From Vicinamibacterales bacterium (GTDB lineage: Bacteria; Acidobacteriota; Vicinamibacteria; Vicinamibacterales; UBA2999): a stretch of DNA of 64,000 nt. Positions 2,824 through 62,708 of the stretch are shown one piece after another (the stretch's first letter is position 1; each line of letters starts with the position of its first letter). The translations under genes and the position numbers were made by a program. The stretch spans positions 1-64,000 of the forward strand of contig JAUXWO010000123.1 in NCBI GenBank assembly GCA_030680175.1. The letters are read 5' to 3'. Below the pieces are notes generated by a model that was given only the letters and a program-made list of their open reading frames with translations, did no database searches and was not told the origin of the DNA.

Positions 2824-5211
2824 TCAGCGTCCCGGCGCGTAGCCGGTCAACAGCACGAGCATGCGCCCGAAGCCGGCGTTCACTTCGATGCGGACCGGGA
2901 CACGACGGTCATCGGCCGACATCCAGAGCGTGACGTCGAGCGGTGTGCGCCGCTCGACGAGGCGCTCGAGCCGCGGCCGGAGCCGCCACGTGTCGATCTG
3001 GCCGCCCTCGTGCGCGATCGTCTCCCGTCCCTCGACGGCCAGCACGAGGGTCTGACCGCGGCCGGCCTCGTTGATCGGCACGCGCACCTCGACGCCCGGG
3101 GTGAACGTCAGCGTCCGCACGTAGAAGAACGCCGTCAGCGCGTCGCGGGCCCCGGCGGCCAGCGGCAGGCTGACGGCGCCGTCGAGGCGCGCGGCCGCCT
3201 CCGTCTCGCCCACCGTGACACGGCGGGCGGCGTGGTCGTACACGTAGGCGCGATCGAACGCCCGCCGTCCTTCCCGGATCTCGCGCGCGTGCACCGTCGG
3301 CAGCAGCGCCTCGTCGGCCTCCGTCGTGAACCGGTCCTCCGCTTCGAAGAACGGCGCCAGCCACTCGGCGGTCTCGACCGCCGCCGTGAACCGGTACGGC
3401 GCGTCCTCGACCTCGACCACCACGGTGCCCGCCGGCACGTCCATGGGTCCGCTTTCCCAGGTCACCTCGAACGTCACCATCTCCCCGGGGCTGAACGGAC
3501 GCGGACCCGGCGGCGGCGCGAGCACTTCGGCCGCCGCGGCCAGCGCCGCCTCGGCGTCGGGCGTCCAGCGCAGCTCGTAGACCACGGCCTCGTCGAAGCG
3601 CGCGCGCTCCACAAGCGGCGAGTGCAGGGTGCCGGCGCCGCCCACCGGCGCCGGCGCGACGACGAACGTGACGCCGATCTCGCGGAGCGCAGCGAGGGCG
3701 ACGGGGGCCGGGAACGCCGCCATCGACTCGACCAGCGCCGAGTAGAACGGCGGACGCTGCCCGCTGTAGCCGTTCACCAGCGCCCGTCCGTGCTCGAGCG
3801 ACTGCACCATCGCCGGCGTGTTGCCGGCATCATCGTCGAGCGGCAGGTGCAGCACCGCGCCGGGCTCCGGTGCGGACTTCAACCACTGCCCCACCGGGGT
3901 CTCCCGCGGCGGCGCCACGGCGAACGACAGGCCGCCGTTGGCGTACTCCGCCAGCACGAGCACCGCGAGCGCGACCGCGGCGACCTGCCGGGCGCGCCCG
4001 GCCCGCGCGAGCACCGTGCGCGTGCCGAACGCCGCGAGCAGGGCGAGCCCGGCGGTCGCGATTACCGCGAACCGCGCGGGCGCGCGCACGGCCTGGAAGC
4101 CGAACACGTGGTCGTGCAGCGCCGCATACAGCGTCCGCGCGCCTTCGGGGCCGAGCGAGAGCACGCCACCTGTCACGACGAGCGCGAGGGCCGACACGAC
4201 GGCGGGATGGCCCTCGCGGCGCCAGGCGCCGGCGACCCCGGCCAGCCCCAGGACCAGCAGCACGATGCCGGGGAACAGCTGATGCTCAACACCGGATCGG
4301 TCGCGGGCGCCGGCCGCGGGCGGCCGCGGGGCGAGCAGGCCCGTCCTCCCGTAGAGCAGGTTGTCCGGCGGCACCTGGATGTAGCTGACGGGGCCGGCCG
4401 CGTGGTTCGCCGCTTCGTACAGGGACCGGCCGAAGCCGCCCTCCCGCGCCGACTGCAGGTACGGCCACAGCACCGGCGCCACGAGGAGGCTCCCGACCGC
4501 CGCCGCGAGCGCCACCTGCGCCCACAGCCGCCGCGCGCGCGCCTGCCCCGTCGTCCACGCGAGCACCGGCGTGGCGACGGCCAGGACCACGGCGGTCATC
4601 ACGCCGTAGTACACCGAGGCAATCGCCTGCAGTCCGGCCACGACGCCGAGCGCCGCCGCGCGGCCCGCGCCGGGCCGGGCGACGAGGCGATGCAGGCACA
4701 GGAGCGCGAGCGGCAGGAAGTACAGCGCCTGCAACTGCAGGTGCAGAAGGTGGGCGGTGCGGTACGGCCAGACGGCCCACGCGAGCCCCGCCACAATCGC
4801 GCCGGCCGTCGATCCGGTCACGCCGCGGGCCAGCGCGTACATCGCCAGGCCGCTCGCGGCCATCGAGATCAGCAGCAGCACGTTGTAGCAGAGCACCACG
4901 TCGCCGGTCGCCGCGTAGAGCGGCGCCAGCACGAGCGCCGGGAGCAGCAGGTGATCCGAGTACGTGAGCGTGCCCGTGGCGGGATGGAAGATGTTGGCGT
5001 CGAACGCGCGGCCCGACAGCACGCCCAGCGGATCAGTCGTCCACTGCTCGAGGCCCCACCCGAGGATCCACAGGTTGAGGTACGGATCGCCCGGCCCGGC
5101 CAGCGCCCCGAGATGGGTCGTCATCTGCGTGGCGAGGGGCCAGGTGACGATCACCGCGGCCGCGGTGAAGAGCGCCACGAGCGCGACGGCGCGGGGCAAC
5201 GCCGCTGGCAT
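2824..5211 (-). CDS. Polytopic membrane protein with C-terminal DUF3108 domain
   Basis: The 795-aa product has about ten hydrophobic segments over residues 5-430, with a first-loop GDPYLNLWILGW block. This resembles the acidic first loop of GT-C type membrane glycosyltransferases or YfhO-like proteins. Residues 430-570 form a soluble region. From about residue 570 (PRPFSPGEMVTFEVTW) to the end the sequence looks like a DUF3108 domain, normally a separate exported protein: beta-rich, with FFYVRTL and a closing VPVRIEVNAGFG block. The two halves are in one open frame without a stop. It lies 7 bp after gatB and is probably co-transcribed. Substrate unknown; the glycosyltransferase link is inference. 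Confidence 0.75.
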   Translation of the reverse strand: MPAALPRAVALVALFTAAAVIVTWPLATQMTTHLGALAGPGDPYLNLWILGWGLEQWTTDPLGVLSGRAFDANIFHPATGTLTYSDHLLLPALVLAPLYAATGDVVLCYNVLLLISMAASGLAMYALARGVTGSTAGAIVAGLAWAVWPYRTAHLLHLQLQALYFLPLALLCLHRLVARPGAGRAAALGVVAGLQAIASVYYGVMTAVVLAVATPVLAWTTGQARARRLWAQVALAAAVGSLLVAPVLWPYLQSAREGGFGRSLYEAANHAAGPVSYIQVPPDNLLYGRTGLLAPRPPAAGARDRSGVEHQLFPGIVLLVLGLAGVAGAWRREGHPAVVSALALVVTGGVLSLGPEGARTLYAALHDHVFGFQAVRAPARFAVIATAGLALLAAFGTRTVLARAGRARQVAAVALAVLVLAEYANGGLSFAVAPPRETPVGQWLKSAPEPGAVLHLPLDDDAGNTPAMVQSLEHGRALVNGYSGQRPPFYSALVESMAAFPAPVALAALREIGVTFVVAPAPVGGAGTLHSPLVERARFDEAVVYELRWTPDAEAALAAAAEVLAPPPGPRPFSPGEMVTFEVTWESGPMDVPAGTVVVEVEDAPYRFTAAVETAEWLAPFFEAEDRFTTEADEALLPTVHAREIREGRRAFDRAYVYDHAARRVTVGETEAAARLDGAVSLPLAAGARDALTAFFYVRTLTFTPGVEVRVPINEAGRGQTLVLAVEGRETIAHEGGQIDTWRLRPRLERLVERRTPLDVTLWMSADDRRVPVRIEVNAGFGRMLVLLTGYAPGR

Positions 5212-29166: not shown

Positions 29167-30693
29167 CTACGGCCTGCCGCCGGCCGTCCACGGGTTCTGG
29201 AACCGCGGGTCGCGGGTGAACGCCTCGTCGGTGAGCGTCTCCAGGAACGCGATGAGCTCGCGGCGCTGGGCCGGCGTGAGCGTGAAGCCCTTGACGAAGC
29301 TGCTCTTGTAGGGACTGTCGGCCCCGATCCCCGCATTCGGGCCGTCGGGGATCGCGCGCCCGCCCGCCTCGTAGTGCGCGATCACCTCCTCCAGCGTGGC
29401 GAGGCTCCCGTCGTGCATGTAGGGCGCCGTCAGCGCGATGTTGCGCAGGGTCGGCGCCTTGAACCGGCCCATGTCCTCGGGGTCGTCCGACACGGCATGC
29501 ACGCCGGTGTTGGGCGCCGGGTACGCGCCCGCCCCATCCACGTTGTACAGGCCGGTGTTGTGGAACTCGATCTCGGCGAAGCCCTTGCCGACGTGGTCCA
29601 CCGTCTCGGTGAAGTTGAACCCGCCGTGGCAATGGAAGCACTCGAGTGCCTCCGAGAAGAACAGGGCCTCCCCACGCACCGCCTCGGCCGGGATCGCCTG
29701 CGGGTCGAGCCCCAGCCGGTAGCGATCGTACGGCGCGCGGCCGGAGATCAGCGTCCGCTGGAATGACGCGATCGCGCGCGTGATGTTCAACAGCGTGAAC
29801 GGATCGGCCTCGTCGGGGTACGCCTCCGGGAACAGGCGCTGGTAGTCGGGCTCGGCACGCAGTTGCCTGAGGAGTTCCCCCTCCATGCCCGACAGCCCCA
29901 GTTCGACCGGCTCCTCGCCGAACATCGGGACGAGCGCCTGTGTCTCGAGACGCCGCTGTGTCGGGTTCGCCCACGTCAGCACGGGGCTGTAGGCCACATT
30001 GGCCAGGCTCATGCTGCTGCGGGGATGCACCTCCCCGGTGGCGCCGACGGCGCGCGCCTTGTCGTCCGAGAACGCAAAGCGCGGCTCATGACAGCTCCCA
30101 CAGGAGAACGTGCCGTTGACGGACATCCGGGTGTCCCAGAACAGGTGGCGCCCCAATTCCACCTTCTCGATGCTCATCGGGTTGTCGGCCGGCACCTTGG
30201 GCCGCGGAAAGCCAGGCGGCAGATCCCAGACGTACCCGCTCCCGTCCCCCTCCGAGACGGCGACCCTGATGCCCGCCAGTCCGCGCACATGCGCGACGAC
30301 CTGCCATCGCGCCTGCTCGGACAAGACCGCGTCGAATCGCGGCATCACGCCGCGCGGGCTCCCCTGGCTGACGACCCAGTAGACCTCCCCCTCGGCATGC
30401 GCGCGTTGATCGGCGGCCGCGAGGTCCGGCACGGGCAGCGCGAGCGCCGCGCCCGCCGCGGTCCCGCGGCCATCCTCGCCGTGGCAGCGCGCGCAGTGCG
30501 CGGCATACGCCGCCTTCCCGGCGTCGAGATCCGCGCGCGTCAGGTCAAGCGGGCTGACCAGCATGCGCGCCTGCGCGGGGGCGAGATGCTGATGCGCCTG
30601 CTCGTCCGCCGGCTGGGATCCCGCCACGAGGGCGGCCGCGCCCCACAGCAGGGCCAGCCCCGCGGCCAGCCCCGCAAAGCGGCGCACCCCCAT
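29167..30693 (-). CDS. MbnH-like di-heme protein fused to an N-terminal cytochrome c domain
   Basis: The protein belongs to the MauG/cytochrome c peroxidase superfamily and, with its MbnP neighbour, to the MbnH group that oxidises a tryptophan in MbnP. Two heme sites match the di-heme core: CGSCH (198-202) and CFHCH (352-356). An additional CARCH (67-71) lies in a separate N-terminal cytochrome c domain of about 90 residues, making the 508-aa chain tri-heme. A signal peptide covers about residues 1-25. Its ATG overlaps the mbnP stop (TAATG), so the pair is co-translated in the order mbnP-mbnH. Confidence 0.85.
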
Positions 30694-31580
30694 TACCGCT
30701 GCTCACCGCGCGCCATCGTCGAGGACGGGCGCACGCGGAAGACGCGCTGCGTCGAGGCCGGCGCATCGCCGAACGCGAGGCCGAGCGCGTCGAAGAGCGG
30801 CGCGCAGTCGGGATCGGCGGGGCCCGACATGCAGCCGCGCGCGGTCTTCTCGGTAAACGCGTCGACATTGGCGCCGGCCAGCAGCGCCGCCATGTCGAAC
30901 TGAATCACGTCACGCGCCACGGAGAACGACGGCAGGTCCACCGTCACGCGATTCCCGTGCTTGCACTCGGTGGGCACGGTCGTCGCCGACCCGCCGGGGG
31001 TGCAGCCCGTGCTGCCCAGGTGCACCATCCACCCCTGCGGCTGGCCGGTGCTGCGGATGTCGAGACGGAGGAACTTGTAGCCCCCGTTCCAGTTCCAGAA
31101 CATGCGCGACACGTTGAGCGGCGACGGCTGCAACGTCGGCTCCTGATGGTTCTTGTCGAACGGCAGGCCCATCTCGAATCGGACGCCGGTGTACGCCCCG
31201 GCGGGCGCGGTCCCCTCGACGACGTGACGCGTCTCCGGCGTGCCGTTCATGCAGGCGCCGGTCGCATCCTCGAAGTCGACGAGCGCCACATCCTCGTGCT
31301 GCCAGAGTCCGTCCTGCGCCAGCGTGACCGGCACCTCCGTCCCATCCGCCCGCACGAGGCGCAGGGCCGAGACATAGAAGCGGAAGTCGCTCACGCGCAC
31401 GGCCGACTTCGTCATGCCGAGTCCCGGATAGGTCGTGCCGCACGCAAACGGCTGGTCCCCGACCACGCCCTCGAACCGGATCGAGACCGGCGCCGCCGAC
31501 TCCGCGGCCGGTTGCGCCCACGCGCTGCCGGACATCGCGCCAAGCGCCACCGCCATCAAGGCCACACGCACTGAGATCAT
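30693..31580 (-). CDS. MbnP-family copper-binding periplasmic protein
   Basis: The 295-aa exported protein matches the 'metallo-mystery pair' partner MbnP. It has an N-terminal beta-sandwich start (VSIRFEGVVGDQPFACG), the FRFYVSALRLVRADG block, NHQEPTLQPSPLN and the Trp-rich MFWNWNGGYKFLRLD. HLGSTGC follows, with further paired cysteines. In characterised members a tryptophan is converted to kynurenine by MbnH and contributes to copper binding. ATG 31580 is chosen for the GAGGAGAG ribosome binding site and the signal peptide. It is divergent from regB. The specific modified residue here is not proven. Confidence 0.85.
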   Translation of the reverse strand: MISVRVALMAVALGAMSGSAWAQPAAESAAPVSIRFEGVVGDQPFACGTTYPGLGMTKSAVRVSDFRFYVSALRLVRADGTEVPVTLAQDGLWQHEDVALVDFEDATGACMNGTPETRHVVEGTAPAGAYTGVRFEMGLPFDKNHQEPTLQPSPLNVSRMFWNWNGGYKFLRLDIRSTGQPQGWMVHLGSTGCTPGGSATTVPTECKHGNRVTVDLPSFSVARDVIQFDMAALLAGANVDAFTEKTARGCMSGPADPDCAPLFDALGLAFGDAPASTQRVFRVRPSSTMARGEQR

Positions 31581-31664: not shown

Positions 31665-31709
31665 GTCGCATCGGCGACGCACATCAGACCTGAGGCAAAT
31701 TGTCGCGAC
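31665..31709. promoter_or_regulatory. GTCGC/GCGAC inverted repeats in the mbnP-regB spacer
   Basis: GTCGC-ATCG-GCGAC (31665-31678) and the palindrome GTCGCGAC (31702-31709) lie in the 232-bp divergent spacer. A further GCGAC is at 31773. RegA-type regulators are reported to bind GCGNC/GNCGC half-site pairs; in a high-GC genome this match is only suggestive. Confidence 0.3.
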
Positions 31710-31800
31710 CGCGAAGCGGGGCTCGGCAGACGCGTGGATTTGCCGTGCGCCCGCGATCCCCTGCCCACGACTGCGACAACATGCCGCACCCCCGCAATGA

Positions 31801-31812: not shown

Positions 31813-33081
31813 GTGGATACCGCGCCGATCGTCTCCGCGCCGTGGGTCGTGCGGTTTCGCTGGGCCGTGATCGCCGGCGCCGCCGTCACGCTGGTGGTGG
31901 GATGGACGGCGCTCGGCCTGCGCTTCGACGTGCGCGTCGTGGCCGCCACGCTGGCCGTGCAGGCGGTCAGCAACTCCTGGCTCGTGCTCCAGCTCCGCTC
32001 GGGCCACGCGGCCACGCGGCTGTCGCTCGGACCGGTGGTGCTGCTCGACCTCCTGCTGCTCACCGCCCTGATCCTCGCCACGGGCGGTCCCGCCAATCCC
32101 TTCACGATTGGCTACCTGGTCTACATCACGCTCGCGGCCGTCATCCTGAACGCCGCGTGGGCGTGGGTCGCGACGCTGGCATCGGTCGCCGCGTATGGCC
32201 TGCTGTTTGTCGGGCCGTTGCGCGCCGTGTTCGATCCCCACGCGATGCACGAGGCCATGCAGCCGGGCATGGGCCACCAGGCGGGCATGTGGGCGGCGTT
32301 CCTCATCGCGGCCCTCCTGACGGCCAGCTTCGTCACCCGGATCCGCTCGGCCGTCGAAGCGCGCGAGCGGGCGCTCGAAGACGCGCGCCGCGTTGCCGCC
32401 GAGCGCGAGCGCCTGGCCTCGCTCACGACGCTCGCCGCGGGCGCGGCGCACGAACTCGCCACGCCGCTGGCGACGATTGCCGTCACGGCACGCGAACTGG
32501 ATCACGCGGCCTCCAGGCCGGGCATTCCGCCGGAGATTGCCGAGGACGCACGGCTGATCCGGTCGCAGGTCGAGCGCTGCCGCACCATCCTCGATCAGAT
32601 GAGCGGCCGCGCGGACGACACCATCGCGCAGGCGCCGCGTGACGCTGACGTGGCGGCGATCGTCGACGCCGCGCTCGAGAGCCTCGATGACGCCTGCCGG
32701 GCGCGGGTGATCATCGACGCCGATCCGGCCCGGCGCGTGCGCGTCCCGGTGCAGGCCACCGCGCGCGCGCTGCATACGCTCATCAAGAATGCGCTCGACG
32801 CGTCGCCGGGCACCGCGCCCGTCCACGTCACCGCCGACGTCGTCTCCGGCGGACTCGCCCTCATCGTCCGCGATACGGGCACGGGCATGACCGACGATGT
32901 CCGCGCGCGCGCCGGGGAGCCGTTCTTCACGACGAAGCCGCCGGGCGCCGGCTTCGGCCTCGGCCTTTTCCTCGTCCGCACGTTCGCGGAACAATGGGGC
33001 GGACGCCTCGACCTGGCCTCCACGCCCGGCCTCGGCACGACGGTGACACTGACGCTGCCCCAGGAGCCCCATGAACGCTGA
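31813..33081 (+). CDS. regB: RegB/PrrB-type redox sensor histidine kinase
   Basis: The 422-aa kinase has six predicted membrane segments (about 15-35, 41-60, 71-90, 98-113, 115-137, 160-176). The RegB quinone box GGPANPF is at 91-97 and the H-box AAHELATPLATI has phospho-acceptor H213. A cysteine in VERCRTIL (256) matches the redox-active cysteine of Rhodobacter RegB. The ATPase follows with HTLIKNALDASPG, DTGTGM and GFGLGLFLVRTF. The predicted periplasmic loop 141-160 is rich in Met and His (HAMHEAMQ, GMGHQAGM). The gene overlaps regA by 11 bp and is divergent from mbnP. Family assignment is strong; the signal is inferred. Confidence 0.88.
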   Translation: MDTAPIVSAPWVVRFRWAVIAGAAVTLVVGWTALGLRFDVRVVAATLAVQAVSNSWLVLQLRSGHAATRLSLGPVVLLDLLLLTALILATGGPANPFTIGYLVYITLAAVILNAAWAWVATLASVAAYGLLFVGPLRAVFDPHAMHEAMQPGMGHQAGMWAAFLIAALLTASFVTRIRSAVEARERALEDARRVAAERERLASLTTLAAGAAHELATPLATIAVTARELDHAASRPGIPPEIAEDARLIRSQVERCRTILDQMSGRADDTIAQAPRDADVAAIVDAALESLDDACRARVIIDADPARRVRVPVQATARALHTLIKNALDASPGTAPVHVTADVVSGGLALIVRDTGTGMTDDVRARAGEPFFTTKPPGAGFGLGLFLVRTFAEQWGGRLDLASTPGLGTTVTLTLPQEPHER

Positions 33082-33613
33082 CGCCCGCACCCTGCTGCTC
33101 GTGGACGATGACGAGGCGCTGCTGACACGGCTGACGAAGGCGCTGACGGCGCGCAACTACGTCGTGTGGCCGGCGCGGACCATCGCGGAGGCGCTGGCGT
33201 GCGCGCGCGCCGAGAGCGCGGAGGCGGCGGTCGTCGACCTGCGGCTGCCCGACGGCCACGGCCTCGATCTGGTGCGCGAGCTGCACGCCATCGACCAGAC
33301 GACGCGCATCGTCGTGCTGACGGGGTACGGCGCGATCGCCACGGCCGTGCAGAGCCTGAAGCTCGGGGCGTCGAACTACCTGACGAAGCCGGTGGATGCG
33401 GATCAGATCGCGGCGGCGCTCGAGGACGCCGAGCCGGCGGCGACGGCCGGGGCGCCGGAGTTCACCGTGCCGTCGCTGGCGCGTGTGGAGTGGGAGCACA
33501 TCCAGCGGGTGCTCACCGAGTGCGAGGGCAACATCTCGCAGGCCGCGCGGGTCCTCGGCCTGCACCGCCGGTCGCTGCAGCGCAAGCTGTCGAAGTATCC
33601 GGTCTCGCGCTAG
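33071..33613 (+). CDS. regA: RegA/PrrA/ActR-type response regulator
   Basis: The 180-aa protein has a receiver domain with acidic pocket DDD (12-14), phospho-acceptor D56 in VVDLRLPDG, and K106 in LTKPVDADQI. A short linker leads to a C-terminal Fis-type helix-turn-helix, NISQAARVLGLHRRSLQRKLSKYP, which is nearly invariant in the RegA family of global redox regulators. It overlaps the sensor gene, so both are made from one transcript. Likely targets include the adjacent divergent mbnP-mbnH pair, but this is inference from position only. Confidence 0.9.
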   Translation: MNADARTLLLVDDDEALLTRLTKALTARNYVVWPARTIAEALACARAESAEAAVVDLRLPDGHGLDLVRELHAIDQTTRIVVLTGYGAIATAVQSLKLGASNYLTKPVDADQIAAALEDAEPAATAGAPEFTVPSLARVEWEHIQRVLTECEGNISQAARVLGLHRRSLQRKLSKYPVSR

Positions 33614-60903: not shown

Positions 60904-61264
60904 TCCCGGAGAGGGAGAGGACGTAGGCGGCGAGCTGGCGGCGATCCTCGAGGCTCAGGTGGCCGTACGCGGGCATCGGGGTCGGGTAGGCGATCAGGCC
61001 GCTGGCAATCGTGTGGGCGACGCGCTCCACGTCGCGGCCGTACTTGAACGCCGCGGCATCACGAAAATCGCGCGGGCGTGGGGTGAGGGTGGGCGCCAGC
61101 CCGCCGTCGCCCCGGCCCTCGTCGCCGTGGCACGGCACGCACCCGTTGGTCACGTAGAGGCTGCGCGCGAGCGCCGGATCGTAGGGCGCGACCGACGGAC
61201 CGCACCCCGCCGCGCACACGGCCATCACGCCAAGCACGCACGCGCCCGCGCACGACGCGCTCAC
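60887..61264 (-). CDS. Cytochrome c lipoprotein
   Basis: The 125-aa protein has a lipoprotein signal (lipobox CAAGC) and one class I cytochrome c domain with heme site CVPCHGDEGRGDGG and a methionine ligand in PTPMPAYGHLS. GTG 61264 overlaps the copD stop (GTGA). The last five codons and the stop are read from the palindromic element, so the original C-terminus may have been altered without loss of the fold. It is probably an electron donor to the neighbouring oxidase. Confidence 0.88.
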   Translation of the reverse strand: MSASCAGACVLGVMAVCAAGCGPSVAPYDPALARSLYVTNGCVPCHGDEGRGDGGLAPTLTPRPRDFRDAAAFKYGRDVERVAHTIASGLIAYPTPMPAYGHLSLEDRRQLAAYVLSLSGRGLAP

Positions 61265-62160
61265 GCGCCCTCGGCGGGCATCGGGAGCGCAGCCAGCAGG
61301 CTCGTCAGCGCCAGCACCACGACCCCCAGCGCGACCTCGATGCTCCCGACGCGCCGCAACTGCCGGGTCGCCTCGTCCTCGATCGCGAGCCCCGGGCGGA
61401 CGCGCTGCCAGTTGTACGCGCCGCACGCGCCCGCCAGCGCAAACACCCCCACCTTCAGCAGCAGCATCCGCCCATACGAGGTGGACCAGAGCGCCGTCCA
61501 CTCGCCGAGATGCAGGCCGCCGGCGACCACGCCGCTCACCGCCATCACGCCCACGGCGACGACCGCCAGAGACGAGAACCGCGCGAACGTCAGCGCCACC
61601 GCCTCACGCCGCGCGGCGCCGTCGCGCGCATCGCGGCCGATCGACCCGAGCCGCACCAGCAGGACGGCGAGCGTCCCCATCCAGAGGCCCGCCCCGGCCA
61701 CATGCAGCGCATGGAGCGGCACCATCGCCCAGATGAGCTCCGGGAACGCCATCGCGTGGCCGGTCAGCGCCGCGGCCGCCACCGCCGACATCGCGAGCAC
61801 GACCCCGAGCGGCTCCCGAACGATCCGCGCCGGCCCGGTGACGCGGCGGATGATCGCGGCCAGCAGCACCGCCGCCGCCGTCGCGGCCTGCCAGCGCCAG
61901 CCCCAGCCCCACGGCGTCTCGAAGACGATGAGCCGCGTGAACTCACGCGTCAGCCCGCCCATCTCGCCGAACGCCATCTGCCCCTGCGCCACGAGGCGCG
62001 CGGCCACTCCGGCCGCCAGTACGACCGCCGTGAGCAGCGGCACACGCGCAGGCACCGGCACCAGCCAGGCGGCGGCGGCCGCGCCGACGACGAGCACCAG
62101 GCCGGAGATGTAGAGGAAGGCGGCCGCGTGGTACCACCACGCCATGGCCTCGTCGAGCAC
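61261..62160 (-). CDS. copD: CopD-family membrane protein
   Basis: The 299-aa protein has about eight membrane helices. The CopD core includes ALTGHAMAFPELIWAMVPLHALHVAGAGLWMGTL with conserved histidines, and GLHLGEWTALWSTSYGRMLLLKVGVFALAGACGAYN. It is thought to move copper across the inner membrane with CopC. It lies 6 bp downstream of copC and overlaps the cytochrome c gene, forming copC-copD-cytochrome c. Confidence 0.9.
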   Translation of the reverse strand: MLDEAMAWWYHAAAFLYISGLVLVVGAAAAAWLVPVPARVPLLTAVVLAAGVAARLVAQGQMAFGEMGGLTREFTRLIVFETPWGWGWRWQAATAAAVLLAAIIRRVTGPARIVREPLGVVLAMSAVAAAALTGHAMAFPELIWAMVPLHALHVAGAGLWMGTLAVLLVRLGSIGRDARDGAARREAVALTFARFSSLAVVAVGVMAVSGVVAGGLHLGEWTALWSTSYGRMLLLKVGVFALAGACGAYNWQRVRPGLAIEDEATRQLRRVGSIEVALGVVVLALTSLLAALPMPAEGA

Positions 62161-62166
62161 GGCCGG

Positions 62167-62532
62167 TTACCTCGCCGCGGGGGCGTAGGTGAAGGTGCGG
62201 GTCCCGCTGATCACATGGCCGTCGTTCCCGGCCGTGCGCCAGGTCAGCGTGTGCGCGCCCGGCTGCAAGGGGTCGAGTACCTCGGCCGTCAGCGACCGCT
62301 CGGGCCCGGCCTTCACCGCGCCGAGGGCGACCGCGCCCTTCGGGCCCTCGAGCGTGAGGGCGCTGACCGCGAGCACCGGGCTCTGCGTGAACCAGACGCT
62401 GACCGCCTTCGGCGCCGCGGTGATGGTGCCCTCATGCGCCGGGTCGCTCTTGCTCACCGCCAGATGCGCGAACAACGGGACGACCGCCAGCGCGGCCACG
62501 GCGACCAAGGTCAGAACGGAACGCTTCAACAT
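62167..62532 (-). CDS. copC: CopC-family periplasmic copper-binding protein
   Basis: The 121-aa protein has a signal peptide (about 1-22). The mature N-terminus starts with histidine (HLAVSKSDPAHEG) and the C-terminal half has the copper histidine in NDGHVISGTRTF. This is the two-histidine Cu(II) site of CopC. GAGGAG precedes ATG 62532. It heads the copC-copD-cytochrome c operon. Confidence 0.9.
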   Translation of the reverse strand: MLKRSVLTLVAVAALAVVPLFAHLAVSKSDPAHEGTITAAPKAVSVWFTQSPVLAVSALTLEGPKGAVALGAVKAGPERSLTAEVLDPLQPGAHTLTWRTAGNDGHVISGTRTFTYAPAAR

Positions 62533-62553
62533 CGCAACTCCTCGGGAGGACCA

Positions 62554-62635: not shown

Positions 62636-62708
62636 GCGCGGGACACAGACAGCGGTCCAGCGACAGATTGCCGCACCCAGGCACGACCGCTCAACGTGCG
62701 ATGCGGCG

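What the first reader, a model, noticed from the sequence alone, without database searches (positions are those of the whole stretch)
32230..32295. Met/His-rich predicted periplasmic loop in the RegB-type sensor
Between predicted helices 5 and 6 the sensor has seven Met/His residues in about 17 (HAMHEAMQ...GMGHQAGM). By topology this loop is periplasmic. Met/His clusters are typical Cu(I)/Cu(II) sites, so the kinase could sense copper directly in addition to quinone state.
Basis: inference. Interest (0 to 1): 0.55.

Follow-up and report, generated by a model that had tools for sequence, protein, structure and literature searches.

The report
His/Met-rich sensor loop, family-wide
The histidine/methionine cluster in this bacterial redox sensor is real and faces the periplasm, but the same loop is histidine-rich in most sampled relatives whether or not copper genes lie nearby, so it looks like a general feature of this kind of sensor rather than a special copper detector.

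Summary
In detail: residues 143-159 of the RegB-like kinase (window 31813-33081) hold 7 His/Met in 17, reached by none of 20,000 shuffles. AlphaFold and the positive-inside pattern place the loop in the periplasm.

In 116 non-redundant relatives the loop is usually His-rich (His 6.2-fold, Met 2.6-fold over the rest of the protein) and H155 (109 of 116) and M159 (104 of 116) are nearly invariant. Richness does not track mbnP: 17 loci with MbnP/MbnH within 5 kb average 3.47 His/Met, 66 without average 3.05, p=0.21. Four of the richest loops have no copper family among the 10 neighbouring genes scanned. So the cluster is a family feature, perhaps a general metal input; direct copper sensing is unproven.

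A copper link is supported elsewhere: regBA and mbnPH are linked repeatedly, and RegR-type boxes lie upstream of mbnP in 11 of 17 linked loci (1.9 expected) against 1 of 12 in genomes without a RegB hit. RegBA probably controls mbnPH, whatever the loop senses.

The parts
31813..33081 (+). RegB-like sensor histidine kinase, 422 aa, six predicted TM helices + HisKA + HATPase
   Evidence: ORF; Pfam HisKA/HATPase_c; best NCBIfam NF033792 ActS/PrrB/RegB 214.6 bits, below its 350 cut-off; AlphaFold
32203..32265 (+). periplasmic loop 5-6, residues 131-151
   Evidence: AlphaFold helix ends; loop charge pattern in 116 homologues
32239..32289 (+). His/Met cluster, residues 143-159, 7 His/Met in 17
   Evidence: sequence; 0 of 20,000 shuffles as rich
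32275..32289 (+). H155-x-x-G158-M159 at the top of TM6, the conserved part of the cluster
   Evidence: H in 109, G in 108, M in 104 of 116 homologues
32083..32103 (+). GGPANPF in the TM3-4 loop
   Evidence: G91, G92, N95, P96 invariant in 20 homologues and G, G, N, P in 68; that this heptad is the RegB quinone-site signature is recalled
32578..32580 (+). Cys256, invariant; candidate equivalent of redox Cys265 of R. capsulatus RegB
   Evidence: invariant in 20 and 68 sequences; equivalence inferred from position after the H-box, no R. capsulatus sequence aligned
33071..33613 (+). RegA-like response regulator, 180 aa
   Evidence: Pfam Response_reg + HTH_8; NF033791 188 bits, below 250; Cys151 is C in 95 of 111 homologues
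30693..31580 (-). MbnP-family protein
   Evidence: TIGR04052 288.5 bits, cut-off 140
29167..30693 (-). MbnH-family di-haem enzyme with an extra N-terminal cytochrome c domain
   Evidence: TIGR04039 489.3 bits, cut-off 362.85, residues 167-502; Cytochrome_CBB3 at 54-136
31692..31706 (+). RegR-type box (GAGGCAAATTGTCGC), mbnP-regB intergenic region
31773..31787 (+). RegR-type box (GCGACAACATGCCGC), mbnP-regB intergenic region, exact match to GCGRCANNNTGYCGC
62660..62674 (+). second exact box of the window, about 120 bp before copC
62167..62538 (-). CopC
   Evidence: Pfam CopC 60.8 bits
61261..62160 (-). CopD
   Evidence: Pfam CopD 78.7 bits

Best explanation
The cluster is the local form of a family-wide module: in RegB-like kinases of Acidobacteriota, Myxococcota and relatives the periplasmic segment between TM5 and TM6 is a His-rich, often Met-rich, variable tether that ends in a near-invariant H-x-x-G-M(-W) at the top of TM6. 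The mechanism I think most likely: the tether and H155/M159 give a low-specificity transition-metal site (copper the best candidate, zinc possible); occupancy shifts TM6, which is continuous with the dimerisation helix, and so biases the kinase on top of the quinone and cysteine redox signals known for RegB. RegA then acts on RegR-type boxes, including those before mbnP. Shown here: the cluster, the topology prediction, the family-wide enrichment and conservation, no dependence on mbnP, the box enrichment. Inferred: metal binding, its coupling to TM6, and RegA binding to the boxes.
For: His 10.9% against 1.8% and Met 4.7% against 1.9% in the 20 residues before H155; richest 17-residue His/Met window lies in loop 5-6 in 100 of 116 proteins; H155 109/116, M159 104/116. 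His is 10.1% of loop 5-6 and at most 2.8% of the other four loops. TM6 and the dimerisation helix are one helix in the model. Family setting is copper/respiration: MbnP/MbnH, PCuAC/SCO1 beside some, cyo oxidase genes beside 4 of 7 alphaproteobacterial plasmid copies; SenC and copper-binding RegA in R. capsulatus (PMC9147068, abstract, introduction and discussion read). A RegB-like kinase beside a methanobactin cluster (Methylosinus sp. C49 plasmid) has HAHEHM in this loop.
Against: No metal binding was measured. Loop residues shift in position and number (0 to 8 His/Met in 24 residues among 98 proteins counted as unlinked), which fits a loose ligand set but also drift. Loop richness does not correlate with copper genes: p=0.46, 0.21, 0.089 when PCuAC/SCO1/YtkA loci are added. 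H155 and M159 are kept in several alphaproteobacterial copies with a His-poor loop (e.g. L158), so they may serve the quinone site or the fold. The Palleronia copy has Y and T at these places.
Confidence: 0.42

Rival explanations
1. The loop has no sensing role. H155 and M159 belong to the quinone/redox core or to the fold of the TM bundle, and the variable His/Met residues are a tolerated, compositionally biased linker.
For: H-x-x-G-M persists where the loop is His-poor (L158, L226 keeps H); the loop is poorly ordered in the models (pLDDT 59-78); residue positions are not conserved; no link with copper genes.
Against: A neutral linker does not explain a 6-fold His excess confined to this loop and repeated in several phyla.
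Confidence: 0.33
2. One reading: the cluster is a dedicated copper sensor that goes with the adjacent mbnPH genes.
For: Met residues M145, M149 and M153 are rare at their columns (5, 8 and 3 of 116), so the window's Met-richness is unusual; mbnPH is next door and boxes lie between.
Against: 17 mbnP-linked against 66 unlinked: 3.47 v 3.05 His/Met (p=0.21), Met alone 1.06 v 0.86 (p=0.72); L031 and L036, both with mbnPH in line, have 2 each while L270/L274 without copper genes found have 8.
Confidence: 0.12
3. The histidines sense periplasmic pH by protonation.
For: Excess is mainly His (6.2-fold) and less Met (2.6-fold).
Against: Met excess is not explained; neighbours show copper and respiration genes, and acid-response genes were not looked for.
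Confidence: 0.1

Closest known systems
RegB/PrrB/ActS redox kinases (NCBIfam NF033792)
   Same: Architecture, GGxxNPF loop, conserved Cys after the H-box, partner of RegA type
   Different: Scores 214.6 bits against a cut-off of 350, and none of 396 + 195 genomes of the two phyla searched passes it; His-rich loop 5-6. Rhodobacter RegB itself was not compared.
CusS/CopS periplasmic copper sensor kinases
   Same: Periplasmic metal input proposed; title and abstract of PMC10100754 and PMC7763554 seen only in the listing
   Different: Here there is no periplasmic domain, only a ~21-residue loop of a six-TM sensor; no sequence test against CusS was made
CorA/CorB and MopE of methanotrophs, MbnP/MbnH of methanobactin operons
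   Same: mbnP and mbnH beside the kinase belong to TIGR04052/TIGR04039; CorA is copper-repressed and binds Cu(I) through two His and kynurenine (PMC3912023, passages)
   Different: These are targets or neighbours, not sensors. Genome mining of 2013 reported no data tying close MbnP homologues to copper (PMC3621798, passages)

Membership tests
ActS/PrrB/RegB (NF033792) | score over the curated cut-off of 350 bits | tested here: not met
   214.6 bits
ActS/PrrB/RegB (NF033792) | six TM helices followed by HisKA/HATPase | tested here: met
ActS/PrrB/RegB (NF033792) | GGxxNPF heptad (signature recalled) | tested here: met
   GGPANPF at 32083-32103
ActS/PrrB/RegB (NF033792) | redox-active cysteine after the H-box | tested here: inconclusive
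   Cys256 is invariant in 20 and in 68 homologues; equivalence to Cys265 and redox activity not tested
ActS/PrrB/RegB (NF033792) | cognate RegA/ActR-type regulator next door | tested here: met
   RegA-like ORF overlaps the kinase end; NF033791 188 bits, but under its 250 cut-off
ActS/PrrB/RegB (NF033792) | quinone-controlled kinase activity | not testable with these tools
   needs biochemistry
periplasmic copper-sensing kinase | periplasmic His/Met ligands | tested here: met
periplasmic copper-sensing kinase | ligand set tracks copper genes among relatives | tested here: not met
   p=0.21-0.46 for mbnP, 0.089 for any of four copper families
periplasmic copper-sensing kinase | copper binding and copper-dependent output | not testable with these tools
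   needs biochemistry

The most novel reading that the evidence does not exclude
RegBA-type systems of Acidobacteriota and Myxococcota form a conserved copper-and-redox regulator: a His/Met-rich periplasmic cap on TM6 reports periplasmic copper, the TM bundle reports quinone state, and RegA drives mbnPH (and here perhaps copCD) through GCGRCA-N3-TGYCGC boxes.
Probability: 0.22. Interest if true: 0.72.

Novelty: new variant of a known kind. Interest (0 to 1): 0.47.

Why it matters
It turns one odd loop into a testable family property: RegB is taught as a quinone and thiol sensor, yet a large set of relatives carries a His-rich periplasmic cap with a near-invariant HxxGM on the helix that leads to the kinase. 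Separately, recurrent regBA-mbnPH linkage and shared upstream boxes give the first concrete candidate that I know of for a regulator of mbnPH outside methanotrophs; searches of an open-licence library found no paper that says so, which does not cover most subscription journals.

Tried and rejected
Cluster as a marker of mbnP linkage: rejected. Phylogenetic pairing of linkage with loop richness: only 7 independent pairs on supported branches, most not differing; no power. Adding PCuAC/SCO1/YtkA as copper genes: p=0.089; in that script one SCO1 query came out as a single residue and another ORF carried both SCO1 and PCuAC, so its SCO1 and PCuAC labels cannot be told apart.

Immediate neighbours of unlinked or unknown loci by Pfam: 68 downstream and 63 upstream proteins of 85 and 89 listed, gene calls by a GC3 heuristic; no dominant family (YtkA in 4 of 68, SCO1 in 1 of 68; only the first 25 of 52 and 58 families shown).

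Fold of the sensor domain: Foldseek found nothing at E<=0.001; VIA-align put ImcA 8wcn at Z 13.3, rmsd 3.2, 166 residues and adenylyl cyclase 8 at Z 9.7, which for a helical bundle may mean only a common arrangement.

Box as a genome-wide regulon predictor: 23 of 24 sites outside the window fall inside called frames, so the pattern alone predicts little. copC box in relatives: 10 CopC loci, exact site only in the window genome, 1-mismatch sites in 2 of the other 3 RegB-bearing loci and 1 of 6 others, positions relative to copC not resolved: not established. The loose box pattern is not enriched over the whole window (56 found, 59 expected). PMC5506826 reports that such motifs did not find the RegA targets of A. 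ferrooxidans (passages), and PMC4064962 that half sites vary in spacing (passages).

Proteobacterial RegB by genome search: G426's phylum gave 2 of 247 hits at E<=1e-60 and seems not to be Pseudomonadota; Rhodobacter, Caulobacter and Bradyrhizobium proteins were never compared.

Full report
What is there. The ORF 31813-33081 (+) is a six-TM histidine kinase followed by a RegA-like regulator; divergently upstream lie mbnP and mbnH. The kinase's best NCBIfam model is ActS/PrrB/RegB at 214.6 bits, below its cut-off of 350, so I call it RegB-like and do not file it as a certified member.

Topology. AlphaFold with 68 and 65 sequences (mean pLDDT 91.2, 92.6) gives TM5 ending near residue 130 and TM6 starting near 152, continuous in the full model with the dimerisation helix. 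Over 116 homologues the Lys+Arg share is 25.0% and 15.7% in loops 2-3 and 4-5 and 3.3%, 0.1% and 4.2% in loops 1-2, 3-4 and 5-6. The loop is periplasmic by prediction. H155 and M159 belong to the first turns of TM6.

Homologue set. I gathered 188 loci, all with a RegB-like hit: the window, its family, its phylum (396 genomes searched, 33 with a hit at E<=1e-30), 80 named loci of a genome-contig scan (best 80 of 526), alphaproteobacterial plasmid copies, and Myxococcota regions (195 genomes searched, 124 with a hit at E<=1e-45) chosen by me so that mbnP-linked ones are over-represented. After removing one duplicate of the window, 187 were aligned and reduced at 85% identity to 116, keeping linked ones first. 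By record title 22 are Myxococcota, 20 Acidobacteriota, 5 Pseudomonadota, 3 Planctomycetota, 3 Thermodesulfobacteriota, 1 Binatota, 62 unnamed.

The loop is His-rich in the family. In the 20 residues before H155 His is 10.9% against 1.8% elsewhere and Met 4.7% against 1.9%; Lys, Cys and Arg are among the most depleted residues. In 100 of 116 proteins the richest 17-residue His/Met window lies here. H155 is His in 109, G158 Gly in 108, M159 Met in 104 of 116. Of the window's other residues, H146 has His in 40 of 85 non-gap rows, while M145, M149 and M153 are Met in only 5, 8 and 3: the Met part is the window's own, the His part and HxxGM are shared. 24 of 116 have at least the window's 5 His/Met in the 24 residues before H155.

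Linked means an MbnP or MbnH match over 100 bits within 5 kb. 17 linked loci average 3.47 His/Met, 66 known unlinked 3.05 (p=0.21; Met alone p=0.72); 33 loci with short flanks were dropped. Counting 98 loci without a match as unlinked gives 3.20, p=0.46. With PCuAC, SCO1 or YtkA within 6 kb added, 27 against 60: 3.52 v 3.00, p=0.089. The two richest loops, L270 and L274 (8 each), and L277 and L287 (6 each) have none of these genes found nearby, and the 10 neighbours scanned (3, 3, 3 and 1 proteins) hit no copper family. In the nearest relatives the DPHAxH...H-x-x-GM pattern occurs without mbnPH (L033-L035, L045), but three of these four and also L079 have a PCuAC gene 1.5-2.6 kb away (L045's contig is short), so at that depth copper genes are not absent. 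L032, a 62% identical relative, has neither within the 17 kb read and carries DAHAPHANFQPHASHQVGM.

Alphaproteobacteria. Seven plasmid-borne copies, read by eye: the His of HxxGM in 6 of 7, the Met in 5 of 7 (Sphingomonas N, Palleronia Y and T); Azospirillum has no His or Met in the tether, Methylosinus sp. C49, beside a methanobactin cluster, has HAHEHM, Agrobacterium HAH. One methanobactin neighbour is suggestive, no more.

RegBA and mbnPH. In the 396-genome phylum set 11 genomes have MbnP; three also have RegB and in all three the genes are adjacent (G000, G001, G029). In the window they are divergent, in L031 and L036 in line as regB-regA-mbnP-mbnH. Eight of the 80 named loci have MbnP in the stretch held. 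In 195 Myxococcota genomes 95 MbnP places lie in 80 genomes, 91 of them in 76 genomes with a listed RegB; 9 places are within 5 kb and 18 within 15 kb of it. Random placement in genomes of about 10 Mb would give roughly 0.1 within 5 kb (my estimate, no call). Linkage changes at least 14 times on a FastTree tree, in a sample enriched for linked loci.

Boxes. The B. japonicum RegR motif is GNGRCRTTNNGNCGC (PMC5506826, passages). With the loose form GNGRC-N5-GNCGC, one pattern and no tuning, 11 of 17 linked mbnP upstream regions (250 bp) have a site, 1.9 expected from dinucleotide shuffles; 12 of 12 further closely related Myxococcota loci (mbnP 7.9-15.3 kb from regB in 10, about 4.4 kb in 2), 1.6 expected; 22 of 33 mbnP loci of other searches, 3.8 expected; 1 of 12 in genomes without a RegB hit, 0.46 expected. 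Fisher 11/17 against 1/12: p=0.003. Reservations: the RegB-less set has lower GC (0.53 against 0.64); the 33 shrink to 13 distinct upstream regions, 9 with a box, four of the 13 being linked loci again; G000's second mbnP copy (L298) has no box; 41 intergenic regions of linked loci, targets included, hold 13 sites where 8.8 are expected. The sites share a tighter form, GCGRCA-N3-TGYCGC. In the window it occurs exactly twice: between mbnP and regB, and before copC-copD.

Reading. RegBA probably controls mbnPH (my odds 0.7). The loop is a family module; that it binds metal in vivo and feeds the kinase I put near 0.4, that it is a dedicated partner of mbnPH near 0.1. Known biology makes a copper link plausible: group 1 regA/regB are cotranscribed with senC, and R. 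capsulatus RegA binds copper and dimerises through Cys156 (PMC9147068, abstract, introduction and discussion); the window RegA has Cys151 in the matching place before the HTH, C in 95 of 111 homologues.

Noticed in passing
window 31692-31706 and 31773-31787; upstream of mbnP in other loci: RegR-type boxes before mbnP in 11 of 17 linked loci (1.9 expected) against 1 of 12 in genomes without a RegB hit; suggests mbnPH belongs to the RegA regulon.
   Followed up: yes
window 62660-62674, 61261-62538: The only other exact box in the window lies about 120 bp before copC-copD; not shown to be conserved in relatives.
   Followed up: partly
L031 (G029:C20:20000-36000): In one line regB-regA-mbnP-mbnH, then a CopC gene about 100 bp after mbnH (L031 about 4300-4584) and SCO1/PCuAC-like frames near 860-1280.
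   Followed up: partly
L033, L034, L035, L079: Nearest relatives of the window system have a PCu(A)C copper chaperone 1.5-2.6 kb from regBA instead of mbnPH (Pfam-confirmed in L079; tblastn in the others).
   Followed up: partly
L228 (Methylosinus sp. C49 plasmid pMSC49c): A RegBA-type pair sits 0.3 kb from the mbnABCMF-type methanobactin genes and has HAHEHM in loop 5-6.
   Followed up: partly
window 29167-30693: MbnH carries an extra N-terminal cytochrome c domain (residues 54-136) before the TIGR04039 part (167-502).
   Followed up: no
L123 5084-5259: Adjacent fragments of MbnP (31 aa) and MbnH (28 aa) beside a RegB gene look like a decayed pair.
   Followed up: no
G000:C78:5041-5634 (L298): A second MbnP gene in the window's genome runs into the contig end; no box in its 250 bp upstream.
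   Followed up: partly
AlphaFold model of residues 2-182: The six-TM domain is closest by VIA-align to the membrane domain of the cyclase ImcA (8wcn, Z 13.3, rmsd 3.2, 166 residues) and adenylyl cyclase 8 (Z 9.7); may be only a common bundle.
   Followed up: no
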